DNA from: Sipunculus nudus
Lineage: Eukaryota; Annelida; Sipuncula; Golfingiida; Sipunculidae
Direction: 5' to 3'
DNA: 64,000 nt
Assembly: GCA_026874595.1 (NCBI GenBank)
Contig: CM049312.1
Location: 24,421,956-24,485,955 of the forward strand
Each line of letters begins with the position of its first letter. Positions within the stretch are counted from its first letter, which is position 1. The translations under genes and the position numbers were made by a program. Below the pieces are notes generated by a model. It was not told the DNA's origin. It was given only the letters and a program-made list of their open reading frames with translations, and searched no databases. Positions 28,371 through 64,000 of this stretch are shown here, one piece after another.

Positions 28371-28380
28371 TATTTCCTAC

Positions 28381-28573
28381 TCATGTGTTTGAATCCACGT
28401 TCCGCCTTCAGTCCAGATCGATCAATTAGTGCAGCCCCTGGGCATTCTGAGATTGTAGGCTGCGTCAACGTTTGCATGTCAGAGTTACACGCATACGTCA
28501 ACGTACTGGAAGACGTACGAATGGTTCCTCGGATAAGCTCCTGTACTTTTACGAGCCGCAGGTCATCATGTCT
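28381..28573 (-). CDS. Copy 1 two-cysteine exon (unknown domain)
   Basis: 193 nt, phase 0 to 1, acceptor TTTACAG, donor GTAGGA. It encodes RHDDLRLVKVQELIRGTI, SSSTLTYACNSDMQTL, TISECPGAA. It shares DLRL, STLTY.C.SD and a second Cys with the copy 3 exon. The pattern faintly recalls half a sushi/CCP module, but I do not recognise it. Open frame. Confidence 0.65.
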
Positions 28574-29660
28574 CTGTAAATAGCATCATGCCTTTTGTTT
28601 GACTGTGGTTTGCTGTTCAATTGTTATTCTTTATAGATTGCTTCTTGTTACCTGTCATTCATATATTGCCAATCATATACTAGGGTTAACATCATATAGG
28701 CGAGATTATATTTTCGAGATTTCCATATTCTATTGTTTCTCTGCTTTATTTTCGCACTCTCGCACAACAATAAATTAGTGTCTGCATTATTCCGTGAGTT
28801 AATTATTTCAAGTAGATTGCAAATTTTACATATAACCAATTAAACATGGAAACTATTGTTTATCATTAGCACTTATTTTGAAAGATTCGATACCATTTAT
28901 AATACCAAATTTGTACTTACGGGTACATACAAGATCAATCATTAGAATTTAAAAGTGTACAAAAATGCAACCACGTGAACAACGTGATGACGGTAAATCA
29001 TTGGTTCAGATGACATAGTATTATTGAGGCAAATTAAATCATCTACATAGCAGTTTCCGTAAAAGAGGTTCTGGTCATTAAACTAAACAACGAAGTGCCT
29101 GTCTACTTTATAAAAATCCTTCAACCTGTGATATGTGTGCTAAAATGAATATTTTTTTTTATATTAGCCAGTATCCAAGGTTAATTAATGAAGTGAAACG
29201 TGGTGGACAGGGAACGAACAATTGAAAGCACATTAAACTGCATCTTGAATTGGATATGACTAACTCATTGGCCATTAAAAATGTAACTGTCCACTTGATA
29301 AACTTGCTGCATGGACCTGCAGGAGATTATTTCTGTCCGCGTGTCAGCCGCTTTACCTTACAAAATACCTAATGTTGGTTCGACAATAAGATATACACAT
29401 ATATGTAAAGGACACAAGTATTATTAGACCGAAGTGAACGTGTAATTGTATTTTGTTTGTTGGTAGCATGGTACATTGTTTCATTTCCCCTCGATGTCAC
29501 GTTTGTCATTCAGTGATTTGTTCACTGAACAATACCATACTCGGAAGAATGAGTGTTCTGAAGGCATGTTATAATCCACTAGTGGATAAAGATTATTTTA
29601 GTTACAGCAGCCTACAGATATTAAAACTAGAGACCCATGGTTCACGACACTCTAGCTGAA
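28574..29660. other. Intergenic between copies 1 and 2
   Basis: No signal-peptide exon for copy 1 was recognised. 29440-29520 ('catggtacattgtttcatttc') resembles 34332-34400 and 41310-41360, a dispersed repeat relic. Confidence 0.4.
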
Positions 29661-36448: not shown

Positions 36449-36559
36449 CCTTGGTGACACAGATGCCAAGGCAACCACCGTTATTTCGATTAAATGACAG
36501 TTCTTCACAACTCCCGTAATGTAATAAACAGTCTTTACCCCAAAATACCGTTACGCAGT
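36449..36559 (-). pseudogene. Copy 2 EGF-like exon 3
   Basis: Reads DCVTVFWGKDCLLHYGSC, EELSFNRNNGGCLGICV, homologous to copy 3 DCASGFWGNDCSNRCGRC. 27 nt shorter, still in frame. The acceptor AG is GG (bases 36560-36561), so splicing is unlikely. Confidence 0.72.
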
Positions 36560-37023
36560 CCATTCAAAGAAACTGGATTTGGCAAAATAATACCGTGTAT
36601 CTAGATTGTTCATGCAAAAATGTCATAACACAGGGCGATCGGAACTCGGATAATTTCTTTATAATTTATATTAGCCCGGCTTTCTCAATTTTAAATAAAT
36701 ATTTTTATGACACGTTCGTTAGTGCTTCAACAACGTTTATTACACAGAATATAATCAACTTAATTTTTTTTGTAAAAGTGTTTGTTAGTTTTCAATTTCC
36801 CTATTTCGCGTCTAACCATCATATTGAGAGTTTCTTAGTTGTATATTAGCCCAGTTTAGTAAAACCCCTATAGTAAAATGTTTTTTATTTCACTTTTGCG
36901 TTTGACAAACCTTTATTTCACTCCATATAAGCAACTGAAATTTCTGTGATTATTTGTTTATTAGTTTTCATCCCCACTTGATTATAATCTAAATGATAAA
37001 TATACGATTAATATATTTTTCAC

Positions 37024-37157
37024 CTTCAAATGTTAGACCTGTGTACGGCGGGTAATAAACACCATATGAACATGTACCATTCCTTATGTCACAAGAATTG
37101 CCAAGGCATGACCCGCAGGTATCAGTCAATTAGTTCCCTATGCACCGGGTCTGCATT
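37024..37157 (-). pseudogene. Copy 2 EGF-like exon 2
   Basis: Reads ECRPGA, TAG, GTN, then a one-base deletion, then TDTCGSCLGNSCDIRNGTCS. 134 nt against 135 in copies 1 and 3. The TAG replaces the same Trp as in copy 1. Confidence 0.75.
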
Positions 37158-37797
37158 CTGTTCAAAATGATGTATTTAATGATTATAGGCGTATGATGAT
37201 ACCTGTTTTGTATTTGCTTGATGGTTATCTTTGTCATTCGTGCCTGGTATTATTTACAGAAATATGATGCCTTATATAACACGCTTTTTATTTCATTATA
37301 TAAACTGTTGTATCGGTAACGTTTATAAGTGTTTTAACTAACAAGCAGCAACCTATTTACCATTCAGAATCACATAAATTAATTTTGAAAAAGCCATTGA
37401 ATGATTTCATGTCTACCGAGAAGTAAACCATATTAATGATCCCTGATAAACATTGTTATTCATGGTGTGCATGACACAACAATTTGTTAGTGTTTTGTCG
37501 GAAAACTTGTTCGTACAAAAATTTTAAAGAACCATTATTTGCGGATGACATTTTCAAATTTTTGTGCCGAGTTAAAGAATCTTGACTTTCATGTTTTCCT
37601 ATACATGAAACATGTGATGTTTGTTTTGTATCACCAGTTTTTGTTTCTTCGAGTTATCAAGAATTGAAATATTAATACATGTTAACCATAACATGAAGTC
37701 CTAGATAAACCGAGACAGCCCATGTTGTCAAGAACGTTACCAGCATTACTTCTAATTCAATAGTTCATGAAGGCATTCTACAACGTCATTACCTTAC

Positions 37798-37924
37798 CGC
37801 ACCTCTTCCCTATGATGCCCGCCTCACACAGTCTAACTGAACCCCGTTGAGCTGGTTACAAGGCATCGTGGCACAGATGCCGTAAGATATCATACAAGTT
37901 ATCCCCGTTGTGCCGATGAACAAA
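37798..37924 (-). pseudogene. Copy 2 EGF-like exon 1
   Basis: Fragments such as CATMPCNQLNGV match copy 3 CATVPCNHLTGE. Stops occur in every frame. The donor GTAAGG survives. Confidence 0.65.
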
Positions 37925-38516
37925 CTTCTTTGGTTATGATAGATTGATAGCCGTAAAATTGTATTGTCAAGTATCAAAAGCCCGATGAAAACCTACCTGT
38001 GCTTTTTATCTCTCATTTAATATTTCATTGAATTTATGCAAAAAGAGAAAACTCTGATGCTTATAATCAAGAATAGTATTCACTGAGTAATATAAATCAG
38101 GTATTTCACGGAATTATATGTATTATCAGTTTTCTTTTAATTCCTCTTTATTTCAACATTTAAGGTAATTGCCAGACAACGAACAAACTATTTCCTATCG
38201 GGCAGATATATCACCCGTAAGTTAAATTGAATTATATTCTTACCATTTCTGTCTTCGTTTTTGAGTAAACTTAAGAAACCCTGTCGGTCTCAGGACAATC
38301 ATTTTAGTTTACATCAAGAACGTATGTCACTCCAGGTCCCACTTAAGTTATCCACTGAACAAGACTGTGTCTTTGTGTCAGGACATCAAACGCTTTATTT
38401 CTTCTTTTATGGCTAAACCAGGTTTAATGCAAAGGAGGTGATTTTATAAAAAAAAGTAATAATATGAAAAGGAAGAAACATGGCAGCATGCTTACCAAAT
38501 TTGTAATTATACCCAC

Positions 38517-38632
38517 CATGGAACAGTAAAATCTACGATCTATGCAGCGGAATTTACTTTCTCATGTCGAGAACTTTTTTGTTCCTGACTGACTCGACGA
38601 CCGACATCCTAACTCCGCCAAACTGAAGTTTT
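38517..38632 (-). pseudogene. Copy 2 SRCR-like exon c, with stop
   Basis: Reads NFSLAELGCRSSSQSGTKKF, ST, TGA, ESKFRCIDRRFYCSM. The donor GTGGGT is kept. The acceptor end lies in a perfect inverted repeat with 38654-38685. Confidence 0.75.
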
Positions 38633-38685
38633 CTACGAAGGAACAAATATTATTTCGTAGAAAACTTCAGTTTGGCGGAGTTAGG
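38608..38685. repeat. Perfect 32-bp inverted repeat
   Basis: Arms 38608-38639 and 38654-38685 are exact reverse complements around a 14-bp spacer. The left arm contains the beginning of SRCR exon c of copy 2, so the right arm is an inverted copy of the exon edge. Confidence 0.95.
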
Positions 38686-38973
38686 AACAAATACTACTTA
38701 AACTATATCCATACTATATGTGCATGTCCATATATAAGAACATGTACGTTGTTGTCAATAAGAAGTAATAAACAGGACTTGCACATAGCCATATCGGTCT
38801 CTCTTTGAAAAGTCCATATACAATTTCACAAAAGAAAAAAATATAAATATTGTTTCTATATTACGTGTGAATTTTATTTGGCAGGTAATTGGTTTGGTTA
38901 TCATATGTTTACCTTACCATTGAACAAGAAATCAAGTAATGCCAAACCTGCTCATAGTATAGTGAATCTGTCT

Positions 38974-39150
38974 CTGGTTGGTTATTTCTTGCATATGCAT
39001 TATGTGGCTGGTTTATGCTTGTCAGCTTACCATATCGTACCCGAGTTAACTCTGAACCAAACTCAATGTAACACACATAGCGCCATTTGTCGTCATCCCA
39101 CATTTGCAAAAGCCCCTTGTACTGCGTCGTACGGTTAAATAAAGCTGACC
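38974..39150 (-). pseudogene. Copy 2 SRCR-like exon b
   Basis: Open frame reading ALFNRTTQYKGLLQMWDDD, KWRYVCYIEFGSELTRVRYG, KLTSINQP. It matches copy 3 GTTQYQGLLQVWDEGKWRFV, but the Cys of VACSQL is Tyr-Gly. The donor GT appears as AG. Boundaries are estimated by alignment with the other copies. Confidence 0.7.
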
Positions 39151-39229
39151 CTTCATTGTATATATGATTCATTTGATAAAATATGTAGATATACACATAT
39201 TTATTATACATATATATATATGTTGAACT

Positions 39230-39490
39230 AACCCGAGACCACTTATAGATAAAACCAATCCTGATGGTGTAGTTTCAGATATATGGGCATTTTTTTCTCT
39301 TCCCATAGCAGCAAGTCACGTTCAAGTGTACTTTTGATTTATATTTTCAAGTTATTTTTAACCAAAATGTTCTATTGAAAGCTGTAACCTTTATTATCCA
39401 ATTGGTAAATTATCATTAGCGTTAGTTCAAGCAATTCATTAAAAGGTTTGCATATCATTAACTCAATGAATGGTGACATTTATAATGCCT
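39230..39490. repeat. Local duplicate of 42350-42740
   Basis: 'gagaccac', 'aatcctgatgg', 'cttcccatagcagcaag', 'ttctattgaaagctgtaacc' and 'aattatcattagcgttagtt' occur in the same order at 42354-42680. It includes the end of SRCR exon a, so unit B is bracketed by direct repeats of host sequence. Confidence 0.8.
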
Positions 39491-39514
39491 TCTCAATAAT
39501 GTGTCCCGTTAATA

Positions 39515-39789
39515 GGTAAAGTCTGCTTGGCTTTTACCCCCAGCCTAATGGCTCATCAGGCCGGAGCTTATACCGCATTCGGTAGCGTGAAGCAACTTAG
39601 GAGTTAAACTCCCTTGGATGGGACGCTTATCCATCAGACGTTACCTTTCAAAGTACAGAGGCACACTTGCTGTTGGGACCTTGCCTATAAGGGTCTTGGC
39701 ACGGTGGGGGTTTTAACGGGATTCGAACTCACGACCTCTCGATCATGAGCCCGCCACCTTAACTATTACACCACCGCCCCCGCCCCACC
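39515..39789 (-). mobile_element. tRNA-derived SINE in unit B
   Basis: The minus strand begins with GGTGGTGTAATAGTTAAGG (A-box-like) followed by GAGTTCGAATCCCG (B box), an RNA polymerase III promoter of tRNA type. The body contains TTGGCACGG-type sequence on the plus strand, 'tgttgggaccttgcc' and 'cggtagcgtgaagc'. Flanked by the 14-bp target duplication gtgtcccgttaata at 39501-39514 and 39790-39803. About 275 bp. Confidence 0.88.
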
Positions 39790-39914
39790 GTGTCCCGTTA
39801 ATACTTGGCCGAATAAATTAGGTGACTAAATGTCACAAGCTCTGGAATGTTAACTTAAATAAGATTTAATGTTATGCCACTGGCTGCCTTTGCCGTGAAA
39901 TATACATCTTCCAG

Positions 39915-40210
39915 GTGTCATTGAATCGGAAACAACACATCAGCATGTTATTAAATGGGGAACAATACACCAGCATGTTATTAAATAGCTATCAACACAT
40001 CTACATGTTATTAAACGGGAACAAACACACCAGTATGTTATTAAATGGGAAACAACACATCAGCATGTTATCAAATAGCAAACAACACACCAGCATGTTA
40101 TTAAATAGCTAACAACACAGCTGCATGTTATTAAATGGGGAAAAAACACACCAGTATGTTATTAAATGGGAAACAACACACCAGCATGTTTTTAAATGGG
40201 AAACATCACA
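39915..40210. repeat. 30-bp minisatellite, about 10 copies
   Basis: Same unit as 31388-31806, with fewer copies and more variation. Shared by both duplication units. Confidence 0.94.
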
Positions 40211-42352
40211 GCAATAACTTTACCTCCGCAAGGGTTTATTCCTGACCTGAATCGTTTTGGCTTGTTTCATAAAAAAATTGCACATTTTGACACTGTGTGA
40301 ACTGACCTTACCATGAACTATACGTGAGCTTAATAGTATATTCAATGAATGAATAATTATATGTAGATCAGTTGAGACCAACCAATCAGGTTACTGGTTG
40401 TAATTAAAACAGTCAAACTCCTGACAATCACAAGAGTGACATATAATTTTGGCGACTTTCCCAAAATCAACAACCTCTACTAACATCTGCAGGCTGTACC
40501 AATACCCGTGCCCGCATGTTTATTTAATCAGGCATACTTCTTATACAAAGGACACAGTATAAAACGTTCCCTGAAAGAGAATAATAATGAGATAAATTGG
40601 CCCTGTGTATAGGACAAAACGGCCAACCCGTTCAGTGAAAGTACTAGGATTTGCAGAAAATTAAACAGTGACAATCTATGCTTTCATTAATAGCTCTTCT
40701 AAAATTGCAAGCTCGACATTTCCAATTTTTGTTAGCTTATACAAATTAGTTTTTATTTATATTTTTTGTCTGAAATTCGAGAAGACTAAATCACCGACTT
40801 TATGCAATGTTGAGGAGCGTAGCCCCCTAGTTCGATCGTAGTTTCTGTTATATTGTATCCAGTGTAGATGAATATTTCAGTTTTTTCAGGTGCGTCGTTT
40901 ATCACAGGATTTTCGAAGTATGTATTTCTTTTAACTCGTTGCCAACATTTTTTTTAAAATAATCAACGTTTTGAGCATTGGTTGTATAAGAATATTTTCG
41001 TAAACGTATGACGCAGATACGAGTATGTTAAATCATTTGTTATTTTGAGTAAATTTGTTTATATTATAAAATTACCAGCTAGGGCTCTCTGCTAGTACAC
41101 TGTTACCATAGAAACTATCTACTTGCTTGGCCGTGACCACCAAACATAATGCAGGTACCATCCATTGGGCAAACATGATCTATCGACCACTGAAGAATTA
41201 TCTGTGCCTCAAAGTGCCAGCTGGTTGATAGACTGTTGTTCCTGGAATGCACGCTGCATAATTGGACCAAGGACTCAGACCAGGCATGATTATAGTTTGT
41301 AGACGTATAATTGTGTTCTGTTTGTTTTTTTTCATGGTACATTATTTCATTTTTATCCGGTGTTATCATGGACGTCAATCTATTCATATTTAAACAGGTT
41401 GTCATTACTCTGCCGTGTGCACGTCTCTTGGCAGAACTAAAATTGTATGTTTAATTACTTTGTGTTTATTTCTCTGTATTAAAATTATTAGATTTGTGCT
41501 CCGTTCATGCTTGACATTTATTGACGAATCTTTTGTATATTTTTACGTTCTTCCTATATTCGAATGGAATACACATTTCGGGAAATGAAAAAGACTCAAC
41601 AGCATGTATTGGTTGAATTACACCAACGTGCGAACCTTTTTAAAAGTTGGACGTGAGATTTATTCTTCTTACTGATTGACGTGTTATTGTGTAAAAGGAA
41701 AGCTGGTATTTTGATTGTATTTTAGTGAGACCTGTCTCTGTTTCTTCAAATGTTTCCAGGAGAGATAATATCCCATTTACAAAATCGCACGCATCACAGT
41801 CTTCTTAAGTTTCTGCAATTTGGCATGCATTGGCCCCCGCCAGGATTCCTTTATCCAACTCACCTGTTTTTATGTAGATCATTAACATTCAGCAAGAAGC
41901 TTCAGTTGTGAGCGTTATTCAATGAAAAGGGCCATAGGAATACAGTTCCAAACATTGTTAAACACAAAGCCTATTTAATGATTGAACAAAATGTCTGATC
42001 TTATACAAATGTGACACTTAAACAACAAGGTTTCCTTGTTTGCTGTGCAAGATAAAGGGCTGGAAATTAAAATAAAATAAGGCGTCCATTTTATGCTTTA
42101 TCTCGCAAGGGTGCGAAGCTATTTAGAACAAAACATAATTTCTTGCCATTAAAGCAATATACTGTTTGCGGGAAAACCTATGTAATTCTGGCCTAAAATA
42201 GCAATATATTCGAATGACCAGGCAATATAACTAAATATTATGTTTATGAATGGAGAAAGAACTTGCATTAAAAAAGAACTCCGATGATTGTGACCGCCTC
42301 CTAATCAGTAACAATGATTTGGGTGGCCTTTGCTAAGAGATCTTGGACAAAC

Positions 42353-42457
42353 CTGAGACCACAACTAATCCTGATGGCGTAGACATCTAGACACAGGCCT
42401 GTTCGGACAGTCGAACCACGTTTTCATTACAGCTAGTCGCATCAGGAGCATACCTGT
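42353..42457 (-). pseudogene. Copy 2 SRCR-like exon a, shortened
   Basis: Starts DRYAPDATSCNENVVRLS and shifts to DCPNRPVSRCLRHQD. 105 nt against 128 in copies 1 and 3. Acceptor TTTACAG and donor GTTTGT remain. Confidence 0.68.
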
Positions 42458-42819
42458 CTGTAAAGTATCATATAAGTATTTGTTATTTAGCCTATACCAT
42501 GCAACAAATTCACTATTGTTTTCGAAATCATTGGTACTTTTTTTCTTTTCCCATAGCAACAAGCTACATTCAATTGTATTTTTGGTTTATATTTTCAATT
42601 TATTGTAAAATCTAGTTTTCTATTGAAAGCTGTAACCTTCATTATCCATTTGGTAAATTATCATTAGCGTTAGTTCTCCCCCTTCCTCAAAAGCTTTGTT
42701 AATCATTAATTCAACGAATGGTCACATTAATTATGCCATCTTAAGGAACTGATCATATAGTATAAAGATGAGACATAAAAAAATGCTAGCATCCACTAAT
42801 CAAATCTACATTGCTTATC

Positions 42820-42954
42820 AAACACAAGGTGGATAATTTTGTGCGAGAACATGTTATTGTTCCATACACCCGTTTCATGGTCGACATCAACACATTCTTC
42901 GTCAAGGAAAATTCCATAGCTTTGCTCCAAATATTTTCATTTAGTATAATAAGG
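42820..42954 (-). pseudogene. Copy 2 C-type lectin exon 3
   Basis: After GGTAG: PYYTK, TGA (Trp in copy 3), KYLEQSYGIFLDEECVDVD, HETGVWNNNMF. The calcium-binding EPN and WND motifs are altered, and the last cysteines are lost. The downstream end is approximate. Confidence 0.78.
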
Positions 42955-52355: not shown

Positions 52356-52545
52356 CGCTTTCTCCAATACAGCCACTGTGCAACAAAGATGATGCAGCCA
52401 AACTCAAAGATGAAGAGGCAGGAGATGAGCATCGCGAGGTCCGATCCAGTCATAGGACAGTCAAGCATCAGCTGCGGAGCTAGTCCTCTACGAGGGGCGG
52501 TGCAAGAACAAGGCGGACAGTCCCGTTGTTTACACAGCGTAGTTA
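52356..52545 (-). CDS. Copy 3 exon 13: membrane span
   Basis: 190 nt, CCTTCAG acceptor, phase 1 to 2. Cys-rich juxtamembrane part (LCKQRDCPPCSCTAPRRG, LDCPMTGSD), hydrophobic span (LAMLISCLFIFEFGCIIFVA) and a basic stop-transfer (QWLYWRKR). The donor is GTTAGA, where copy 1 has the stronger GTAAGT. Confidence 0.8.
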
Positions 52546-55500
52546 CTGAAGGAATAAAAAAGCGATGACACTCGGTGTAGAAAACATGATTTGTCTGTTA
52601 CCCAAAAAAAAACCCTGATAGCTTACATTTTCATAGAAAAATGTAGCGCGGCACAAAGAAACCGACACATTTATAGTGCAGTTCATTCTGTTGTTACACT
52701 ACAAGCACGATCGCTGTGGGTTTTACCTTTGTCACACATCGGCCCTGTATAGCCATGGTAACACATATTGTCAGGACAACTGCCATCATCACGGTCACAT
52801 GAAATATTCTCACATCGCCCACACCGATTTGAACAGTCATTTCCCCAGAATCCCGAAGCACAGTCTATTGACAAAAAGCACATTTAAAAAAATGTCTATT
52901 AACTTATTGTATCCAGATAATTGATTATTAAATAAGCCTAAATATATGAGGTATGGAGCTCATTTTTCTTTTATAATCGATTTTAAATTTCAAAATGGTG
53001 TATATATATGCTCGAAATCAGTTCATTTTTAGTATATTCAAAGGTTGGATAGAATGGCAATTCATCTATTCGTCTTCAGTCAAGTGGTATGTGTGCAAGA
53101 AAATCAAAGTAAAAAAAAAAAAAAAAAAAAAAACAGAACACAAAATTGTACGATACGCATATGACACGGTATTGATTCTTACTGGAAGCCATCGGTCTGT
53201 TAATGAAGCATTGTTAACTTTTACTGATTTCAAAGAAATTTCTGGTCTCAAGTTAATCTTGAGAAATCAATTATAATACCAATAACAGAGGATACAAAAC
53301 AACATGAAAGGATAAAAAACTCAGGTTTACAATGGTGAACAGAATCAATTAAACTTTTAGGAATTAATATATATCCTAATTGGGGAAAAGTAACAGAAAT
53401 TAATTACAAAGAGATCCTTAGTAAAATGAAAGTGATTGTTAATATATGGACTGGAAGAACATCAACCCTGTCTGGTAGAATAACAATAATAAACCTTTTT
53501 CACATATGCAAAATTAATCAAAGAAAAGAGATTACTTTTAAACTATATAGAATATTTAAGTATAATAGACTCTAATCCTGCAACATGGAAGTGGATTATT
53601 AAAAGGACAAATGAAGAATTATGCGTAGTAGAAAATAAGGAAGAAAAGCTTGTAAAGATGAAAAAGATCTCACTAGAAATTTGTGGCGAATTGATTCGAA
53701 AAGTATTCAAAGAACCTTAAAAATATAATCCAGATATGGAGATAGGACAGAATTTGATTGTCATAATATACATTTATAGCATTTGGACACATAGAAAAAA
53801 ATCAAAATTTCAGAGAAACTGAGAGATTTTGAGTTCAAACTAATATATAGAATTTTGCCTTTAAATCCATTCTTATATAAACTAAATAAAAAGTATTACT
53901 GAAAAATGTCCATTATGTTCCAAAACCAAAGAAACGTATGGTCAATTATATTTTGAATGCAAAATAACTAAAACATTACTGAAGGAATTTAAAGAATGGT
54001 TAGAACTAGAAAAAGTCAATATAGACAATTTTAATCTTACCATGTCAACAGTGCTGTCTAACGTTAACGGAATGCCACTCACAGATATGATAATACTATT
54101 GTTAAAAATATATATGGATGTGTAGTTGTAAAAATATTTTGCCTATATTTCATTCTTTTAAATAATATGTTAAGCAAATATACCTTATTGAAGAAGATAT
54201 TCAGTCACAAGAGGAATAGGATTATTTGTAACTAGACTGAACTGGATAAAATACATATGTGTATATGTGTGTACATGTGTATGTGTGTGTGCACACATAT
54301 GTGTATATGTTTAAACGTTTGGGAATTCTATATACTTCAGTTTGGGTACCATTCACATATATTTCTTGCCTCATGTATGTACATAATGTTTGTGGACAAG
54401 TGTTGTTTTGTTATGTGTGGTATTATGAATTTTCTGTTGAATCGATAAAAAAAAAACTGATATGTGTGCATCTGAGTATAAGTGTCCAGGTTATTTGCAT
54501 TTCTAGACAACGTTATTCCGTGGGTTCTTCACCTTTACAAGTTGTTCCTGCGTATCCCGGACGACAATCCCCTGAAAGACATGTTCCATTCTTTCTGTCA
54601 CACGCACTGCCAAGACATGACTCGCAGGTATTCAAGCAATTAGGTCCCCATTTACCAGGTTGGCACTCTATTCAAATGGAAGAATTGAATTTGAACAGAA
54701 GCATGGTCATTTTCCTTTATAGTTAGAGGATTATGACTATTTTCGTTCCCTTTGAATTACCCAAACATCACCCCCTAACTGTTGAACGGGATTACACCGT
54801 TTGTAATGAATCATCAGGAATAATATAAAACATAGCCTGGAACCTCACTTAATTAAAATTGTACCAGCGTATGCAGTAGGACCTAAAAACCATGCACACC
54901 ATTATTATTCTAAGGTGTATAGGGTATTCTCCAGTATTATTACCTGCATCACACCTTTCTCCCATTAAGCCCGTCTCACAAAGTCCATTCACCGGTGAGA
55001 TGGTTGCAAGGCACCGTGGCACAGATTGCCTGAGATTCCGTGCAGGCCTTCCCCCATCTCCCCGGTGAACATGCTGGTTTTATTGTAGGAGGAATATGGT
55101 CATCAAATAAAAAATATTAAAATGTTATAATTAAAAAAAAACAATACAGACAAACCCATTTCCTCCATTGAAAATTCTTGCTTAAGTATATTGATACATA
55201 CACAGTATAGGCCTCTTTAGACTTTTGCTTCCCAGTAGATATCGTCTGTATATTAAGGCCTGGGCGGCTGAGCGGTAAAACGCACGGTCTTCTCCGCTGG
55301 CGACCCGGATTCGATCCAAGGTGCTGCCATGAGAATGAGTTGTAGTGGCCCGTCCACGGTAAGTGGTTTTCGCCGGGTTCTCCGGCTTCATCCACCTCTC
55401 TCACTACGATCTTCAACTCTATCAGTGTCTTCTACTTTCGCCTTTAATATCTAACTGTAAAACCGACTCAATCTGTCAAACTTTGTCGTTGCTGAGGGAG

Positions 55501-58500
55501 GCAGTGCGGCCGGATTTTCCTGGAGACCTGTAACTAGCTCGAGCGCAGACTTCACTTTCAGTCAGTCAGTCATTGTTTCTATATTGATATATTATTTAAG
55601 AATTGTATTTATGTGGAGCACTTGGTGATCAACAAAATCCCAAATTATTACACTTCAAGGCGAAACTCTCAAATTAAAATATTTTGTCCAAAAAAGAATC
55701 GGGAGATTATTGACATTCGTCAAGTTCACAAAATAAATTTTTAAAAATGAAGACATATCTTTGCTATTTTCTTAAACATTTCTCACCTTGTTCGTGCGAT
55801 GCACCATCGGAAAAGACCTTAGAGACCTGAGAAGGCGTGTCAACTTTAGGACAAATATGGTCCTTGCACGATGTGTATAGGTCTCTGCTTATGTCACCAG
55901 AGTGATCCATCGAGCGTGATTTTGTCTGGGTATGAAGAAAGGAAACGTTGAGGATTCCTTTACGATTCCAATATATGATTTTTAATGTGAAGCCAACCAA
56001 TGCGTTCAAATGCCGAAATACAAAGTAAAATTGTCGGCAGTTTTACGGATACCCACCGTAGAGCAGTATAATTTACGATCTCTGCAGAGTATTTCACTCT
56101 CACCATGACGAAAACATTGTGTCAATGACTCACTCGGACAGCGTAACTCCGCCAGACTGACCCATCCTGTGAAAGAGTAAGTAATGCTACAGACAAATTG
56201 CCATTTCCGTAGCCTTATTTGAATAAAACTAGTATTGAAGGTAAACGCCTTAAAAGCGGGAAAAAAATTAAAATTTTTGGCATTTTAGTTAATCCACACA
56301 AGACATCTTAAAGAGAAAATCAAATGTTATTTCTTCTGATATTGATCTTCAAATGACGCTTCTGCCACCTTAATGTATTTTATATTGAAAAAAGGTTCGC
56401 ATTTTGTTATATTTCAAATGCCAAGTTTAAACATTTTGCTTCATTTTAACGGTCAGGTACCTGCTTGAACCTCTGGCTTGTATTAAATTTATTTGACAAA
56501 ACACGCAATACTGGTTGACAATACCCAAATAGAGCGAGCAGACAACTATCAATCGGAGTGCGCATGCTCGTGGAATAGCTATACACTTATATTATACCGA
56601 CGTCAACTGGTTTGGTTTATCTTATCTTCATCCTTTCATTGTATACGATATCATGTAACTCAAAAACTGTTCAAAGTGAAAATAATTTATCTCACCAGTT
56701 CGCATATCATTATATATGAGAAGTGGTTGGGTGATGCCATTCAGCTGACTACATGCTACTTGTGTTTCTTTCAAGCCGAAATGCATGTCACACACAAAGC
56801 GCCATTTACCCTCATCCCATACTTGCAAGAGCCCTTGATACTGCGTCGTTCCGTGAAATGACTGCCCATCCAGTGTCTACAAAGAATACATACAATTTGT
56901 TGTATAAGACTTGCATAAATCTTGTCTACAGTAACAGTTGATGAAATGATCGACGACCTAAACAATTGAGTACTAAGTATTACTTTCACGAACCTGAGAC
57001 CACGAATAGGCGCAGGTGATCTGTACCACGTGGTCATGTGGACAGAGGCCTGATCTTGAGGAGCAGTCAGAGAGCCGAGCCTCGTTTCCAGTACATCTGG
57101 TCTCATTGTAACCATATCTGTCTGTACAGTTGTACAGTTTCACACAAATGGTCGTTGGTTATTCAACAAATATTATGCAATAGTTAACACAAGTAAAACC
57201 TGATTAGTGAACAAATAGCTGCTTATATAAATAAAATAGTTCAACTTTACGTTCAACTTTATTTTTGGCATAAGTGTTTTTTTCCATTAATGTTATTAGT
57301 TAATAAATGAAAGGGATGTCCAGTGTAAGCTGTAATTTTGTTTATTCAATAGGTGATAAATTTTAGGCTTTAGTTATGTCTGCGCATTGCAGGGTTCTTT
57401 ACAATCTATTCATATTATATAGACATAAAGCTATCAAATTCTACAATACTGTTTACTGACTCACCGCTTCTCATGGAACACATTGAGGTCTGTGTTCTAG
57501 AACACATGTCATCGTTCCATTCACCTGTTTCATAGTCGACTTCAACACAGTCTTCGTTTAGGATGACGCCATTGTTCGGCTCAAATAATTTCCATTTGGT
57601 AAATTTAGGCTACAAGCAATTTTTCAAACCAGTAAGAAAATGTCTTTAATAATATATTCAGATGGTATGCCCGTGTTAAACACCTTTGTTGGCCTAAAAA
57701 TGAACCCCATCGTGTAAATCACCAGAAAAATTCGTATAAATAACCCATTTAACGTTGTTAACGTAACTTTAGTCTTCTCATGGAACATTTTATTTAGATT
57801 TTGGTAGAAGATGTTACGGTTTTAGTATGGACCATTTATAATGGATGCACAGCGAACTATAAGGACTGCATACATTGTTCATAACTTCAATCATTTATGG
57901 TTGTCTCATAAATTATTTATTTTGCATTTGGGTTATGGAGGCTGTTATAATATTAAATATGAACAGTAAAGATATTTGATATTATCAAATACATTACTTA
58001 GTAGCATTTGACTTATTAGTAAATGGACTGATATAAACATTAGAATACTAATATTGATGTAACTCGACTGCTCGTTTGATAAACTCTATATTTTGAATTA
58101 AGAGTTATGGATGCTTATATGATATGAATATGAAAAAGACATTTAATGTAACGACACAGTAATAAAATATATAGATCTGAATTGATGCAAACTCATTCTA
58201 GTTATTTAAACAATTTTGCGTAGAACATAATTGCCTGAATATTTCTATAATATTCCAATTAAAATATAATAATTGAACCAAACAATAGTAACATCACGTG
58301 ATCTCACTCTTTCGCCAAAGGCATATTCAAATGTTCCTTCTTTTCTTTGGTCGTTTAACAAGATCCAAAAGTCATAGCTTGCCAATCCATAAACGAATCT
58401 GGAATTAATAAATAATACATGTACCCACTCGGAACAGATGTCTCAGACGTTTTAATTAGAATAATCTTTATAAGCATCCCATTTCAGTAAATCATCAAAA

Positions 58501-60567
58501 TTAAAAGGAAAATTGCATTTTTTTTATTTTACAGTTTGAGTCTGTAGTACATATAACTTTCGTAAAAATAATGTACATGAAAATAAAAGTTTTATCCAAT
58601 AATAAATACCAAATAAATCTATCATTTTAGGTGCCGTCGGTGAGATCAAAGTTTGAAATCTTTTTATAATGTACTCTCAAATGTTTGAAAACAAAAATAG
58701 TCTGAGGAGGAATACACATCCAGTACCGCACTCATTGACGAATCATCATCACCCAGTATAATAAATATGGAGTATAGAATTAACAAAGTGCAAACGATAT
58801 GGTGCAGGCATTCACGTCTCTTAAATATAATACTAGTTCATATTCAAATAGGCTATATGTATTCATACATGTGTATGTATATTCGTTTTTTTATACCTAT
58901 TATGGGCATTGTCTGGAATGCGTGCCAGATCCCCTCCAAGATATTTACAAAGAGTGCGGGAATCTTTCCAGTTCCTCTTAGAAGCAATATAGTGATAACA
59001 ATACCCCTTGAAGAAGTGCCAACCAAGGGGACAATCTGAAATGATGTAATATTAACTATCATGAGGAGGTATTTAAAAAAGTTCGCTCTGCGCTTTGGCT
59101 TAGATAAAAGAAGAATATAGATTTTACCGTCATGTATATGTTCATGTAGTGTTTTACTGTTAAATATGATATTAGATTTGCAAATCAAACACGACTAATA
59201 AAGTGTGTCGCAACAGGACGCTTACATTTATTTGGGACTCATGTGCAGGCGTACACTACGTTTCTCTACATCAAATTTAAATACTTGTACTTTGGACAGA
59301 AAAAATGCAGATGGGCCGTTCGCCAACACATCTGTTGGAATATTCCTTTCTCGAGAAAACATCAGATAAATCGTTAAAGGTCGCTGATTAGTAATCTCAC
59401 TTTAATCTAGGTCCAAAGCACAGTCCCATTAGAGTATGTCAAACAATGTTTGTCACAAAATCAATTAACTTTAAGACAAAGCAATTTGATGTCATTTTTG
59501 TCACAAAATTTAAACAACTTACAAAATTCAGGAAATTTAATGCAGGTAAGCATGGTGGTGTTCGCTATCCTATTGCGTCGTATTTTCAGAAGCACCATAA
59601 GTAGTTTAATTTTAATTTAAATTAAATCGAAAATATTACTCGAATGTTTAAAGCTTCCTTCGAACTTGGTTGCTTTGAGATCCCTCAGACCAGTCGGTTC
59701 ACATCCTGACGGTACAATTGATTCTACATCCGAGTCACAGATATAGGTCAAGGTCGAGTTTGTAGAAACTCTCGACCCCCAGGTAACCTCATGCGCATTT
59801 GTAAGTCGTAGATCACCAGCCCTCTCCTAAGTAATTCAACAATAGGCAAGACCTTACACGAGTTCCTTCTTGAAGAAAAACTAAACATTTATTCATTTTA
59901 TCGTACCCGGTAATTTGCTTTTTTATGAGACAGTGAAAGTAATTCTAAGGTCGCATTTAACTATGTTAATGCCCTTTCATTCTCAGATTGAAGCGTACGA
60001 TACTGTGCCTATCGTTCAGTACCCAGCGGAGCTCGTGTCTGCATATCGAATGAGGGGAGATTAGCCACATGACCCTGGTAAGCAAGTTACTAGACATAAC
60101 GAATGAATATGGTGTCATCGTAGAGAATTTACCAATTTTTTTAAATGTCTATACTCCTATGTTCATACTTTATAATGGCTATTCAGTGTGAGTCAAGCAA
60201 CGTGAAATCTCTTTATATTCGGTCATGGATATGACCTTAATAGATGGTGATTGGATTTAGCTGAAATCTTAAAGGGTTCTATGTAATAGATTGGGCAACA
60301 GATACTCATAAATGTTTAAAAGCAAGGGAAGAGAAAGGACTTAATAATTTTTATCAAAAGCAGCTTATGTTTTATGATAAAACTCAGACAAATATAAAGT
60401 ATTAAGTACGCTGCATAATTCTCGTCTGGTAATAATATTTGGTTTGAAATTAATTTTAATAATATGACGCTGAACACTTTCTAGTTTTATATTCTTATCG
60501 TACAAAACACTCTTACCGCTTCAGCCCGCACCGTAAGCAACGAAAGTATCGTCCACATGGGAATCAT
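52356..60567 (-). CDS. Receptor copy 3: signal peptide, C-type lectin, SRCR-like, EGF-like x3, TM
   Basis: Multi-exon minus-strand gene assembled from 13 exons: 60517-60567, 59640-59826, 58897-59035, 58308-58398, 57465-57609, 56994-57121, 56696-56876, 56057-56166, 55787-55925, 54944-55073, 54533-54667, 52727-52864 and 52356-52545. Every boundary has GT/AG and every phase agrees except across the tenth, which is shifted. That exon is phase 1-1 and can be skipped, giving about 544 residues to the end of the membrane span. Predicted type I membrane protein. The lectin domain has EPN and WND motifs, which in the family indicate calcium-dependent binding of mannose-type sugars; SRCR and EGF-like modules are typical of scavenger and adhesion receptors. 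A pattern-recognition role is inference. The 3' end is unresolved. A live gene with one alternative exon, or a young pseudogene, are both possible. Confidence 0.78.
52727..52864 (-). CDS. Copy 3 exon 12: EGF-like 3
   Basis: 138 nt, phase 1-1. DCASGFWGNDCSNRCGRC, ENISCDRDDGSCPDNMCY, HGYTGPMCDKG. Eight cysteines in the multiple-EGF (laminin/MEGF-like) spacing. Acceptor CAATAG, donor GTAAAA. Confidence 0.85.
53146..54125 (+). pseudogene. LINE fragment (Tx1/L1-like reverse transcriptase, 3' half)
   Basis: Begins at the catalytic strand RYAYDTVLILTGSHRSV (YADD altered to YAYD), continues LLTFTDFKEISGLKL, then in shifting frames IKLLGINIYPNWGK, INYKEILSKMKVIVN and TLSGRITIINL. After further sequence it ends with a Cys-rich knuckle, CPLCSKTKETYGQLYFECK. 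This order fits the C-terminal half of Tx1/L1-type LINE ORF2. A long A-run (53111-53132) lies immediately upstream. Inserted in the intron between EGF-like exons 2 and 3 of copy 3. Inactive. Confidence 0.78.
54533..54667 (-). CDS. Copy 3 exon 11: EGF-like 2
   Basis: 135 nt, phase 1-1. ECQPGKWGPNCLNTCESC, LGSACDRKNGTCLSGDCRPG, YAGTTCKG. Intact; Trp is encoded by TGG where copies 1 and 2 have TAG. Confidence 0.86.
54944..55073 (-). pseudogene. Copy 3 exon 10: EGF-like 1, frameshifted
   Basis: 130 nt, starting in phase 1: ACSPGRWGKACTESQAIC, ATVPCNHLTGEWTL and then TGA. The downstream part, CETGLMGERCDAG, is in another frame, consistent with a deletion of several bases near TGE when set against copy 1 (TTGDCPEGLCK). 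Two cysteines are also missing. Skipping would keep the frame. Confidence 0.75.
55258..55580 (+). mobile_element. tRNA-derived SINE, full head
   Basis: Head GGCTGAGCGGTAAAACGC (A box) and CCCGGATTCGATCCA (B box) from 55262, body with 'ggcccgtccacgg' and 'ttctccggcttcatcc', end near 'cagtcagtcattgtttc'. A different family from the SINE at 39515. A truncated relative lies at 30331. Confidence 0.75.
55787..55925 (-). CDS. Copy 3 exon 9: linker
   Basis: 139 nt, phase 0 to 1. TKSRSMDHSGDISRDLYTSC, KDHICPKVDTPSQVSKVF, SDGASHEQ. Two cysteines. A hydrophilic spacer between the SRCR-like and EGF-like parts. Acceptor ACCCAG, donor GTGAGA. Confidence 0.75.
56057..56166 (-). CDS. Copy 3 exon 8: SRCR-like c
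   Basis: 110 nt, phase 1 to 0. GWVSLAELRCPSESLTQCFR, HGESEILCRDRKLYCST. Position and cysteine pattern fit the second half of an SRCR-like domain begun by exon 7. Acceptor TTTCACAG, donor GTGGGT. Confidence 0.78.
56696..56876 (-). CDS. Copy 3 exon 7: SRCR-like b
   Basis: 181 nt, phase 0 to 1. TLDGQSFHGTTQYQGLLQVW, DEGKWRFVCDMHFGLKET, QVACSQLNGITQPLLIY. G.LQVW..G.WRFVCD...(E)TQVACSQL matches the first half of SRCR domains. Confidence 0.84.
56994..57121 (-). CDS. Copy 3 exon 6: SRCR-like a
   Basis: 128 nt, phase 1 to 0. DRYGYNETRCTGNEARLSDC, SSRSGLCPHDHVVQITCA. CTGNEARLSDC is the classic second-half SRCR signature. It directly follows the lectin domain and precedes a first-half SRCR exon, so it stands without its own first half. 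Confidence 0.84.
57465..57609 (-). CDS. Copy 3 exon 5: C-type lectin, sugar-binding end
   Basis: 145 nt, phase 0 to 1. PKFTKWKLFEPNNGVILNED, CVEVDYETGEWNDDMCSR, TSMCSMRSG. EPN and WND are the calcium and sugar ligands of mannose-type lectins, and the three cysteines fit. Acceptor CTTGTAG, donor GTGAGT. Confidence 0.9.
58308..58398 (-). CDS. Copy 3 exon 4: C-type lectin, middle
   Basis: 91 nt, phase 2 to 0. FVYGLASYDFWILLNDQRKE, GTFEYAFGER. FWILLND replaces the WIGL.D motif. Acceptor TTCCAG, donor GTGAGA. Confidence 0.85.
58897..59035 (-). CDS. Copy 3 exon 3: C-type lectin, start
   Basis: 139 nt, phase 1 to 2. CPLGWHFFKGYCYHYIASKR, NWKDSRTLCKYLGGDLARIP. A textbook long-form start: CP.GW..F...CY, W..SR..C...GGDLA.I. 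Acceptor TTTCAG, donor GTATAA. Confidence 0.88.
59036..59639. other. Copy 3 intron
   Basis: Nothing recognised beyond splice signals at its ends. Confidence 0.5.
59640..59826 (-). CDS. Copy 3 exon 2: two-cysteine module of unknown family
   Basis: 187 nt, phase 0 to 1, acceptor TACTTAG, donor GTAATA. ERAGDLRLTNAHEVTWGSRV, STNSTLTYICDSDVESIV, PSGCEPTGLRDLKATKFEGS. Conserved with copy 1 (DLRL, STLTY.C.SD, Cys). Perhaps a degenerate half sushi module; I do not recognise it with confidence. It joins the signal-peptide exon and the lectin exon in matching phase. Confidence 0.7.
60517..60567 (-). CDS. Copy 3 exon 1: signal peptide
   Basis: 51 nt from ATG 60567 to donor GTAAGA: MIPMWTILSLLTVRAEA, a short hydrophobic leader ending in an AEA-type cleavage context. 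Phase 0 out, which fits exon 2. The only ATG in this frame position upstream of the hydrophobic core. Confidence 0.72.
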
Positions 60568-61857
60568 GATGTTTAGAAAATATCGTGGGAGTCTTCGTAG
60601 GGGGACCCTTTGTTTGGGACGGAGGCCATCATTTATTTGTATTTCCCATAGAGTTCCTCATGTATATCAATAAGTTATTCGCCCCATTGTTTGTTTTTTT
60701 TTTTCATCTCTTCCAGCCAGGTTAGCTGAGGTAAAGTTTACCAGATCACCGTGGATGAGCTGTATATCAGAGTTATTTTACAACCTCGTAAAACTATCTG
60801 ACACTATCCTTAAATAAAGAAAGACGTTATATTTGATTTCCTTTGATAATTACGGACATACAAGATACTTAATGAATTAAAATGACACAAAACGTTGAGA
60901 AGACCAGAGGTGTGAACTGTGGCTTAGGACTTTTTATATTTAATCTTTTTAACCTCGAAGTTTGAGGAAAGCTTTGTCAGATGTAATTAATAACCAGAAA
61001 TTAAAAAAACTAAACTTGATATTATGTACCTACTTTTAGTTAACAAATTATTTCCTTTTTTAACCATTGTACTATTGTCAGTAAATGTATTCCGAATCAT
61101 TAATTGTTATTAAGAGTTTAATAAATAGAATAACACTTTACTATGGATATGTCAGCAAATAAGACAGCTATCTTACATCCACGGATTGTTAAATTTATTC
61201 ATATTTAGTCTTATCTGAATTACTGAATTTTTACATGTTAAAGCATATATTGATGTCGTTTTACAGATAATTTACTTTATAAATTAATCAGTAGATATAA
61301 TATTTATATGATCTGAATATCTGAAAACAGAATCCAAATGCCCATGCAAGAAACAATTAATTCATCTAAAATGATACGCGCACTGCCATTCCGGAACGTC
61401 GTTTTTTTGTTCAGTATATGATTGAAACCGAAGAATAATAAATGCCTCGTGCGTACTAATCTCTGAATATAAATGCGGTGAATGTAGGACACTAGGAAAC
61501 AACTACACAAACTCAAGCTGGTGCTCTCATGTGATTCCTCGCACGAATGGCTCCAGAACTATTTGACCGAAAAGAATTAATGAACCGAAGTACTTTCCTT
61601 TCTTCTCATATCTAGTCTAACTTTAATGAACCTTGCTTAATAGATCACCCGTGAATCTGATACCGAAAATCAGTTTATATAAAAAACCTAGAGAATGGTC
61701 CTTGTGCTGTGAATACGCTATAGAGCAAAAGATCAAATTTTGAAGGAGCTGAACTTATTAAATTTTATTTGACATTAAGAATGGTTTCTTGAATCACCGA
61801 TCATGCATCCAATTCGGTTTGTGTGAACGCGGATTCATGTCCTTCCCACCAGGTCAC
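60568..61857. other. Upstream of copy 3, no gene recognised
   Basis: Should contain the promoter and 5' UTR of copy 3. I see no convincing TATA box or other regulatory motif. A poly-T run lies near 60690. Confidence 0.4.
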
Positions 61858-61942
61858 TTGTCTTCTCTGCAGAGAGAAGTGTCCGTGCAGCCGCTTTCAC
61901 ATACTTGGCACATAATTAAATAGGCGTTTCCTCGACATAAGT
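61858..61942 (-). CDS. Cys-rich exon-like segment, copy a
   Basis: 85 nt between TATACCAG and GTGACC, phase 1 to 2. DLCRGNAYLIMCQVCESGCT, DTSLCREDK. Six cysteines. Not recognised. It may be an exon of a further receptor copy whose other exons lie outside or have been lost. Confidence 0.4.
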
Positions 61943-62208
61943 CTGGTATAAAAAGAGCCCTGAAAATGAGCATACAGACAAAAAAGAGGGAAATAATAAT
62001 ACTGTTATATAGATAGGCATATTAACGGACATGTAAATTTATACTTTATATAGGATACTTGTTTTATTTAATACTAATAATTGCATTATGTTTCCCCAAA
62101 GGTAACGTTCACGGGTTGGGAATCAATACCTTATATTGGTATTTGGACTAAAATAATCACTAATTCGGTTTGTGTGAACGCGGCTTCATGTCCTTTCCAC
62201 CGGGTTAC

Positions 62209-62293
62209 TTATCTTTTCTGCAGAGAGAAGTGTCCGTTCTGCCGCTATCACATGCTTGGCACTTAATTAAATAGACGTTTCCTCGACATAAGT
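62209..62293 (-). CDS. Cys-rich exon-like segment, copy b
   Basis: 85 nt, same phases. DLCRGNVYLIKCQACDSGRT, DTSLCRKDK. Tandem duplicate of copy a, 351 bp away; flanks are also similar (about 61810-61980 and 62160-62330). The splice-like ends are kept in both copies. Confidence 0.4.
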
Positions 62294-62330
62294 CTGGTAT
62301 AAAAAGAACCATGAAAATGTAAAAATAATA

Positions 62331-64000
62331 GCATAATATTTGCTAATCAGTCTTATTTTGTCGCAAACAATTGCACAACTCTGAACATATGATCAACTTT
62401 ACTGTCACATGTTAATTATGTTAACAAAAATATAGGTTCATGGGATTTTCATAGTATGTATTAGCATATTTGTTATCTCTGTCTTAATCTGTCTACAATG
62501 ACAGAGAAAATGTATTTTCTATTAATTTTGCTAAAAGTACGATGCATATCAAGGTCCAACACTTACCAAATATTGACTACCCTTTGATGGTGGATAATTC
62601 GTAGTGCCTCGTGTGACTGGGGCCGGATTCCGGTGTAGCATTTTGAAAGTGCACGCTAGAGTTCCGGTGCAGCATACTTAAAAGGATCGGAACACTTTAA
62701 AGGTCCACGCGTTACTTACCATAATAACGTTTTATTGCATTTACCCACCTTGAGTAACTGTGTTTGATACATCTCCATACGCTCTAAGATCGTCACATAA
62801 AATGTGTCATGACACTCCCTAATGTTTGTGAATATAATTCCTTATGCTACTTACTTAGAGTCTCAATGCTTGTTTCATGTATCTGTATGGCATGCGCTAG
62901 GCATTCTGATTCGTGTTAAGCGCAAACCCTGTGCGCTGCTATGGGAACCGCACTTGCTGAACTCTGGCTTGAAGAGACACAGTACTCGTTGTAGTCTTGA
63001 AATTTCGGGTCGGTTCATGCGCTATGGGAATGATCTTTGGAATGATCGTGAATATAGAAGGCTCTGGGCTTCAGGTAAAAAAAGCTATAAATAGGGGATG
63101 TGTTTAGAGCCGGGAAGGAGGAAAATACCAGCGGACACGGAAGAGTGTAACTCTCTCGTCAGTTTTTTTTGTGGCCTTTTATGATAATTGCAGAACTTAC
63201 AGATAGTCTACGGACTTTGTAACAGATTTTATACGGATTGTCTACAGTCTGCAATTGTAATTATTTCCTGGACTTCACTTTTGGATTACAACAGATTGTG
63301 TTCGAGATTAAATCGGACTATTCTCTGAGAAGATTTAATTCTGAGAAGAACTGTTTACGTGGATAACTTGTGTTAAAGGACTCTAGTTGAGCTGTGAAAG
63401 TTGTTATATCCAGAAATCAAAGCCTAGGATCCGGACTTTGGTGATGTACATTTTTTTATTATTTTTATGTCTTAAATACTGTGTAATTGTATTGATTTCG
63501 TGTATTGTAATGTTAGGATTGTGTAAGAATAAATTATAATTATTTGTTAACAAAAAACACTGACTTCTTTATTCATTCCCCTGGACATTTCACTCTGCCT
63601 ACTCTTGCGGAATTTGATATGTTTTATCTCCGTAACAAAATTTATGCTGATCTCGATTACGTGATATGTTGTTATTAGCTTGAGTGGCCTTTCTGTTGAA
63701 GCAGACTTCTACGCTGGAAAAAAAGTAATTTAAACAATCCTAACAAAGTACACGTCGGAACTTGCATTTTTGTCCTGCGTTACCATACCAACGATTGAAA
63801 ACATGGGAAAACATGAAAACATATGAATACAAATTTTAATGTTTTTTTAATCTAGCAACAATTTGTACAAATCCACGGGTCTACCCTGAAAAATATGAAA
63901 AACTGGGGCTTGTTTAGAGGGGGCGTAACAGGCGTTTACCGACGTGTATTTCCTTTCTTCTCACTGTACGGTCAAATCAACTTGCATTACAGCTAAATAA
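62331..64000. other. Intergenic, possible LTR-like stretch
   Basis: 63101-63637 begins TGTTTAGAGCCGGG, contains AATAAA near 63530 and ends CCGTAACA, as an LTR might, but I see no 5-bp target duplication and no matching second LTR. The plus-strand frame 62822-63094 has no recognised domain. Confidence 0.3.

What the first reader, a model, noticed from the sequence alone, without database searches (positions are those of the whole stretch)
52356..60567. Receptor with an unusual order: lectin, SRCR-like, EGF-like, transmembrane
Seen: 13 minus-strand exons with agreeing phases encode a signal peptide, an unknown two-cysteine module, a C-type lectin with EPN and WND, three SRCR-like exons, EGF-like repeats and a membrane span. 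Known: each domain occurs in scavenger or pattern-recognition receptors, and EPN lectins bind mannose-type sugars. Inference: I do not recall this combination as a named receptor, so it may be a lineage-specific immune or adhesion receptor.
Basis: partly seen in the sequence, partly recalled or inferred. Interest (0 to 1): 0.88.

Follow-up and report, generated by a model that had tools for sequence, protein, structure and literature searches.

The report
Lectin set inside a scavenger-receptor domain
The gene is real and belongs to a large family of likely cell-surface receptors in this animal, in which a sugar-binding lectin domain appears to sit inside a scavenger-receptor domain, ahead of a second such domain, EGF repeats and a membrane anchor; they may sense foreign sugars.

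Summary
Confirmed and extended. The gene is not solitary: the window holds two decayed tandem copies, and an open 645-residue relative on another contig has the same order and phases. Of 81 SRCR-exon matches in the genome, 60 have a lectin match upstream on the same strand within 15 kb, none on the other strand. Of 64 matches to the 'unknown two-cysteine' exon, 59 have a lectin downstream. Main reinterpretation: that exon and the first 'SRCR-like' exon are the two halves of one SRCR domain, with the lectin lying in the phase-1 intron between them. Phases, cut position, cysteine spacing and joined-exon profile matches support this; the sequence signal of that exon alone is weak and one control is unfavourable. 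Gene A is worn: one EGF has lost most cysteines, one is missing, one keeps frame only through an internal donor. Seven paper searches showed no such architecture. Function (glycan-sensing or scavenger receptor) is inferred.

The parts
60517..60567 (-). exon 1: start codon and signal peptide (phase 0 out)
   Evidence: present in two upstream cassettes
59640..59826 (-). exon 2 (phase 0->1): two-cysteine module, read as the N-terminal half of SRCR 1
58897..59035 (-). exon 3 (1->2): first part of C-type lectin domain
   Evidence: Pfam Lectin_C
58308..58398 (-). exon 4 (2->0): lectin domain
   Evidence: fused to exon 3 in the C6a genes (contiguous matches)
57465..57609 (-). exon 5 (0->1): lectin domain with EPN, NEDC and WND
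56994..57121 (-). exon 6 (1->0): C-terminal half of SRCR 1 (4 Cys)
   Evidence: Pfam SRCR 22.3 bits alone, 25.4 joined to exon 2
56696..56876 (-). exon 7 (0->1): N-terminal half of SRCR 2
   Evidence: Pfam SRCR, exons 7+8 40.9 bits; CD163 best in PDB
56057..56166 (-). exon 8 (1->0): C-terminal half of SRCR 2
55787..55925 (-). exon 9 (0->1): degenerate EGF 1 (2 of 8 Cys left), frame still open
   Evidence: position and phase match EGF 1 of the C1a relative
54993..55073 (-). exon 10 (1->1): half EGF; keeps frame only with the internal donor at 54993
54533..54667 (-). exon 11 (1->1): EGF
52727..52864 (-). exon 12 (1->1): EGF
52356..52545 (-). exon 13 (1->2): Cys-rich stalk and membrane span
   Evidence: relatives at C17 and C1 loci; hydropathy
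   Evidence: match in copy C, E 0.007
36468..42948 (-). tandem copy B, decayed pseudogene (stops in the exon 5, 8 and 11 homologues, exon 10 homologue out of frame)
14575..28576 (-). tandem copy C: exons 2-4, 6-11, 13, 14 found; exons 1, 5 and 12 not found; stop in exon 11; probably a pseudogene
57579..63995 (-). unit of 6.4 kb (exons 1-4 and the first ~27-31 bases of exon 5) repeated twice more, mostly beyond the window's end

Best explanation
Gene A encodes a type I membrane receptor of a large multigene family. A signal peptide is followed by an SRCR domain that is interrupted by a C-type lectin domain, then a second SRCR, EGF repeats, a Cys-rich stalk, one membrane span and a short tail. 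The family founder most likely arose when lectin exons (phase 1-1) entered the phase-1 intron between the two exons of an SRCR domain, and then multiplied. Likely working: the lectin binds sugars (mannose type in gene A) with Ca2+, the SRCRs bind further ligands, the EGFs are a stalk, and the short tail, without a signalling motif that I could see, implies endocytosis, adhesion or a signalling partner. Shown by sequence: exons, phases, order, family, motifs, purifying selection in two pairs of relatives. Inferred: splicing, the nested fold, sugar binding, immune role.
For: Order and linkage: gene A, copies B and C, and an open relative (C1a) with 14 modelled exons (13 GT-AG junctions; its signal-peptide exon was not located), same phases plus one more EGF exon, 645 aa. 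Genome: 60 of 81 exon-7 matches have an upstream same-strand lectin match within 15 kb, 0 of 81 an opposite-strand one. Exon-2 matches (E up to 1): 64 of 64 have a lectin or exon-7 match downstream, 59 a lectin within 12 kb, 50 the order exon 2 - lectin - exon 7. Nesting: exon 2 has the phase (0->1), near-equal length (187 v. 181 bases) and Cys positions (30, 42 v. 29, 42) of exon 7. In exons 6 and 8 the first Cys is the ninth whole codon after the split codon, in gene A and in C1a, so the SRCR is cut at the same place in both. Exons 2 and 6 supply 2 + 4 Cys. From Arg of 'RL' the invariant Gly lies at +10, Cys at +23 and Cys at +35 to +38 in 11 of 11 related exons, v. +10, +24, +37 in CD163 domain 1. 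Exon-2 sequences average 2.2 bits on the exon-7 profile, above 1000 of 1000 shuffled sets; exons 3, 5, 6 and EGFs average -0.6 to 0. The joined exon 2+6 profile reaches back to positions 4-30 in 6 of 26 PDB rows, such as CD5L (5-103) and Mac-2 binding protein (4-105), and in CD163 domain 1 (6-103). One paralogue (L046) has exon 2 then exon 6 with no detectable lectin between. Lectin: of 11 members whose motif I read, EPN 6, QPD 2, EPS 2, EPT 1. Selection: dN/dS 0.18 (C1a v. C1b) and 0.21 (C6a pair).
Against: Exon 2 alone: no SRCR match in any of 10 members in Pfam (two stray matches, E 0.028 and 0.044); in PDB only TGF-beta receptor at E 0.54 or worse. On a CD163-only profile 26 of 1000 shuffled sets reach the observed mean, 1 of 11 exons is individually below 0.05, and the unrelated lectin exons 3 and 5 of the same genes score higher on average than exon 2. 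In one search three of 10 are not above shuffles, and the profile comes from the same genes. In one search the joined pair passes Pfam's cut-off in 3 of 10, two of these essentially on exon 6, and in four of 10 the match stays in or close to exon 6. In one search, 8 of 9 CD163 domains align only from position 44 on. Exon 2 v. exon 7 by hhalign: probability 6.7 %, E 0.0054 (controls 0.065, 0.6). In L046 exon 2 adds only 1.8 bits, and the lectin may have been lost there. Two of three lectin-less-looking loci that I opened have lectin exons. No RNA, structure or ligand data.
Confidence: 0.67

Rival explanations
1. No nesting: exon 2 is an unrelated N-terminal module and exon 6 a leftover half SRCR, so the protein is a simple string module-lectin-half SRCR-SRCR-EGF-membrane span.
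For: Exon 2 alone matches no SRCR; the CD163-only test is marginal, 26 of 1000, and lectin exons score higher there; hhalign probability 6.7 %.
Against: Phase, length, cut position and cysteine spacing all fit an SRCR N-half; 0 of 1000 shuffled sets; near end-to-end SRCR matches of the joined profile in some PDB SRCRs.
Confidence: 0.3
2. Gene A is a dying copy: the architecture is that of the family, but this locus no longer makes a working receptor.
For: Exon 10 is out of frame at its homologous end; EGF 1 has 2 of 8 Cys and one EGF exon is missing relative to the C1a gene; neighbours B and C are broken; the 5' end is freshly triplicated, the outer copies cut inside exon 5.
Against: 601 codons stay open over 14 exons although dS to copy B is 0.87 and to C 1.64, with dN/dS 0.34 and 0.24; a donor inside exon 10 keeps frame.
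Confidence: 0.45
3. The receptor is used for adhesion, junctions, gamete or food recognition rather than immunity.
For: Drosophila Bark, which also carries SRCR and lectin domains, is a septate-junction protein according to passages of the SpBark paper (PMC6716108); CTLD-EGF proteins such as selectins are adhesive (recalled).
Against: Size of the family and variation of the sugar motif (EPN, QPD, EPS, EPT) fit a recognition repertoire better than one structural role; not decisive.
Confidence: 0.3
4. Two neighbouring genes, a lectin and an SRCR/EGF receptor, were wrongly joined.
For: No transcript was seen; 9 of 81 exon-7 matches also have a lectin match downstream on the same strand within 15 kb, as expected of neighbouring copies in clusters.
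Against: Phases fit across the join in gene A and C1a; 60 of 81 exon-7 matches have the lectin upstream within 15 kb, and within 5 kb 36 have it upstream and 0 downstream; the open frame around exon 6 holds no Met.
Confidence: 0.03

Closest known systems
SpBark / Drosophila Bark (PMC6716108, passages including part of the abstract)
   Same: Type I membrane protein with SRCR and C-type lectin domains; SpBark's lectin domain binds microbes and LPS and the paper links the protein to haemocyte phagocytosis.
   Different: Three SRCRs come first and the lectin last (residues 2512-2608); no EGF run is described in the passages; no nesting.
Group XIV lectins (CD93, thrombomodulin, endosialin; recalled)
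   Same: N-terminal lectin, EGF repeats, one span, short tail.
   Different: No SRCR domain.
Selectins, and 'P-selectin' families of clams (PMC9484242, passages)
   Same: Lectin and EGF domains in some members; expanded in Sinonovacula and Mercenaria.
   Different: Built mainly from CCP domains, which Pfam did not find in gene A or C1a; SRCR does not occur in the paper's main text.
CD163 and other class I SRCR receptors
   Same: Best PDB matches of the SRCR exons.
   Different: Only SRCRs outside the cell; no lectin or EGF (recalled).
Mannose receptor family (Endo180/MRC2)
   Same: Best PDB match of the lectin, same Ca2+/sugar residues aligned.
   Different: Several lectin domains in a row with CysR and FNII domains (recalled).
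Stabilin, SREC/MEGF10-type EGF receptors
   Same: EGF type (EGF_STAB1-2 over cut-off in gene A, 0.6 bits under it in C1a).
   Different: No lectin-SRCR head of this kind (recalled).
SRCR+CTLD protein of Mnemiopsis (PMC11797021, passages)
   Same: One protein with both domains is mentioned.
   Different: A single case; order, EGF and nesting not stated in the passages.

Membership tests
C-type lectin-like domain superfamily (PF00059) | Lectin_C match over cut-off | tested here: met
   64.4 bits v. 22.6 in gene A; 52.5 in C1a
C-type lectin-like domain superfamily (PF00059) | Ca2+-dependent sugar site residues (EPN or QPD, Glu, WND) | tested here: met
   Residues present in gene A by alignment to MRC2 and family; motif meaning recalled; binding itself not tested
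SRCR superfamily (PF00530) | At least one SRCR over cut-off | tested here: met
   Exons 7+8: 40.9 bits v. 26.1
SRCR superfamily (PF00530) | Second SRCR formed by exon 2 + exon 6 | tested here: inconclusive
   25.4 bits v. 26.1 in gene A; 3 of 10 joined pairs reach 26.1, two of these essentially on exon 6; one search supports, one search is weak
Scavenger receptor class I (CD163 type) | Only SRCRs outside the cell | tested here: not met
   Lectin and EGF domains present
Bark / SpBark | Three SRCRs before one lectin before the span | tested here: not met
   Lectin precedes the complete SRCR; comparison from passages of PMC6716108
Selectins | Lectin, EGF, then CCP repeats | tested here: not met
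   No CCP match at E 0.1; SRCR instead; definition recalled
Group XIV lectins | Lectin then EGFs, no SRCR | tested here: not met
   SRCR between lectin and EGFs; family definition recalled
Mannose receptor family | Several lectin domains | tested here: not met
   One lectin stretch; definition recalled
Scavenger receptor (functional definition) | Binding of modified LDL or polyanions | not testable with these tools
   needs protein

The most novel reading that the evidence does not exclude
A lectin domain was inserted, through a phase-1 intron, into the middle of an SRCR domain, giving a nested two-domain head. This chimera then founded a receptor repertoire of at least 50-60 genes and pseudogenes on 13 contigs, with diversified sugar motifs (EPN, QPD, EPS, EPT), some of it still gaining and losing copies by tandem duplication, here of a 5' lectin cassette.
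Probability: 0.55. Interest if true: 0.72.

Novelty: new variant of a known kind. Interest (0 to 1): 0.6.

Why it matters
Animals without antibodies rely on large families of germline receptors. A family whose head is one binding domain set inside another would be an unusually clear case of domain insertion by exon shuffling. With dozens of copies and variable sugar motifs it would make testable how an invertebrate spreads glycan recognition over a gene family. It also points to a likely annotation trap: each half-SRCR exon alone looks like a fragment or an 'unknown module'.

Tried and rejected
Protein database search with an early spliced model (554 aa): none of 2016 candidates reached E 0.001, so relatives in other animals could not be found. 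Haemocyanin search to place the host gave nothing, and no control genome rang, so I do not name the host. Two-genes-misjoined was rejected on phases and recurrence. Diversifying selection: not seen in the one recent pair tested (dN/dS 0.15-0.28 by domain in the C6a pair). ITIM/ITAM in the tail: none seen by eye in gene A, C1a or C1b. A search of the fetched loci with gene A's tail gave no match at E below 0.27 outside the window. Structure prediction was not used: its stated rule admits window sequence letter for letter, and a spliced protein is not that. The first exon-2 donor (59691) was replaced after comparison with relatives. The first shuffle test gave unreported shuffles a score of -30; redid it with the lowest reported score for them (2950 and 2807 of 10,000 were unreported).

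The reasons are a miscount (3 of 10, not 4, pass the cut-off) and the control in which lectin exons outscore exon 2, which my first text left out.
Full report
What was checked. The window is bases 24,421,956-24,485,955 of contig 7 in a 1.43-Gb assembly of 153 contigs. I rebuilt the minus-strand exons by hand and by script. The final model of gene A has 14 exons from 60567 to 51990, every intron GT-AG, start phases 0,0,1,2,0,1,0,1,0,1,1,1,1,2, 601 residues and no internal stop. Pfam on the whole product gives Lectin_C, SRCR (two stretches) and EGF_STAB1-2 over their cut-offs.

The surroundings. The window holds two further copies on the same strand in the same order. Copy B (42948-36468) has stops in the exon-5, exon-8 and exon-11 homologues and a broken exon-10 homologue. 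Copy C (28576-14575) keeps exons 2-4, 6-11, 13 and 14; no exon 1, 5 or 12 was found, and exon 11 has a stop. On the 5' side a 6.4-kb unit holding exons 1-4 and the start of exon 5 is present three times: the first two copies are identical over the 6380 bases compared, the third is 98.6 % identical. In the two outer copies exon 5 ends after 27 bases and would reach a stop after 14 codons. That identity may be a very recent duplication or an assembly error.

The family. With exon 7 of gene A as query the genome gave 81 matches at E 0.001; with the lectin, 142 matches, only 150 of 630 candidates having been scored. Sixty of the 81, on 13 contigs, have a lectin match upstream on the same strand within 15 kb; none has one on the opposite strand within 15 kb; nine have one downstream on the same strand, as neighbouring copies would; about 0.08 pairs were expected by uniform chance at 20 kb. 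At 20 kb eight opposite-strand cases appear (7 upstream, 1 downstream), which I attribute to dense clusters. Sixty is a lower bound: of three 'unpaired' loci that I opened, two have lectin exons after all (L047, and L048 with a fragmentary first exon) and one has none (L046). With exon 2 of a relative as query there were 64 matches at E up to 1 (they include gene A and its two outer cassettes), of which 59 have a lectin downstream within 12 kb (median 1.19 kb), 50 the order exon 2 - lectin - exon 7, and none has neither partner. Of 12 genes at the loci other than the cassettes, nine show exon 2, lectin, exon 6, exon 7 and EGFs in that order, exon 2 of one of them and single lectin exons unmatched in some; C6d shows no EGF in the stretch fetched, and C8a and C8b only parts. 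Four of the nine (two on C17, two on C1) also have the matched membrane-span exon in place. One of these, on C1 near 55.1 Mb, splices into an open frame of 645 residues without its signal-peptide exon, which I did not locate; it has five EGFs and an 18-residue tail and the same phases.

The reinterpretation. Exon 2 is probably not an isolated module. Its phase, length and two cysteines match exon 7, the N-terminal half of SRCR 2; exon 6 matches exon 8, the C-terminal half, the first cysteine being the ninth whole codon after the split codon in both. The lectin is a phase 1-1 block between them. Removing the lectin and joining exon 2 to exon 6 gives a profile that aligns almost end to end with CD163 domain 1, CD5L and Mac-2 binding protein, while in 8 of 9 CD163 domains only positions from 44 on align. 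Exon-2 sequences beat 1000 of 1000 shuffled sets on the exon-7 profile, 7 of 10 individually at 0.04 or better, though at only 2.2 bits on average and with a profile from the same genes. On a CD163-only profile they beat 974 of 1000 sets, but only 1 of 11 individually below 0.05, and lectin exons 3 and 5 score higher on average there. Pfam and PDB searches with exon 2 alone find no SRCR. I therefore hold nesting to be likely, not shown.

State of gene A. Relative to C1a, gene A has lost one EGF exon, six of eight cysteines of EGF 1 and part of EGF 3. Its codons stay open although synonymous divergence from B and C is large, so it was constrained for long; whether it still works is open.

How it may work. 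The lectin has the residues of a Ca2+-dependent mannose-type site (meaning of EPN and QPD recalled), best matched in PDB by the second lectin domain of mannose receptor 2. Of 11 members whose motif I could read, six have EPN, two QPD, two EPS and one EPT, which suggests different sugars. The tails of A, C1a and C1b are 15-30 residues without a signalling motif I could recognise, so the receptor would act by capture, adhesion, uptake or a partner. Two pairs of relatives are under purifying selection (0.18; 0.21), as expected of used genes; dS values above 1 are near saturation.

Literature. Seven searches of the held library and passages of ten papers, PMC7663992, PMC4346834, PMC9334734, PMC10855680, PMC12297450, PMC6716108, PMC11797021, PMC5119243, PMC9484242 and PMC7430831, showed SRCR and lectin combinations in several animals, but not this order or nesting. 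No paper was read whole; figures, supplements and subscription papers were not seen, so the architecture may be listed somewhere unseen.

Verdict. A real, well-supported receptor architecture, far more widespread in this genome than the finding suggested, with a probable nested-domain origin; a new variant of a known kind.

Noticed in passing
G000:C8:42336800-42339800 (L046): A paralogue with exon 2 and exon 6 about 0.8 kb apart and no lectin exon detected between them: an uninterrupted ancestor-like gene or a secondary loss.
   Followed up: partly
window 57579-64000 and on to contig position about 24,498,800: Three head-to-tail copies of the 5' lectin cassette, two of them identical over 6380 bases; the outer copies would end in a short truncated lectin.
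   Followed up: partly
G000:C6:28680000-28699999 (L036, L037): Tandem pair of QPD-type relatives (galactose-type motif, recalled), dN/dS 0.21 over the nine exon segments compared.
   Followed up: yes
G000:C7:41.5-43.1 Mb: Many SRCR matches spanning most of the Pfam profile in one open frame, apparently a different SRCR family.
   Followed up: no
window 2769-4230 +: Open frames that look like a Tigger/pogo-type transposase (by eye, not tested).
   Followed up: no
window 24292-24741 +: Open frame that looks like part of a retroelement polymerase (by eye, not tested).
   Followed up: no
window 1-2576 and 4450-5645: Arrays of a 374-base satellite unit.
   Followed up: no
window 31380-31803 and 39916-40210: Two related 30-base tandem arrays, lying in longer repeats about 86 % alike.
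   Followed up: no
window 53300-54130 +: Fragments in the intron between exons 11 and 12 that look like a non-LTR retroelement (by eye, not tested).
   Followed up: no
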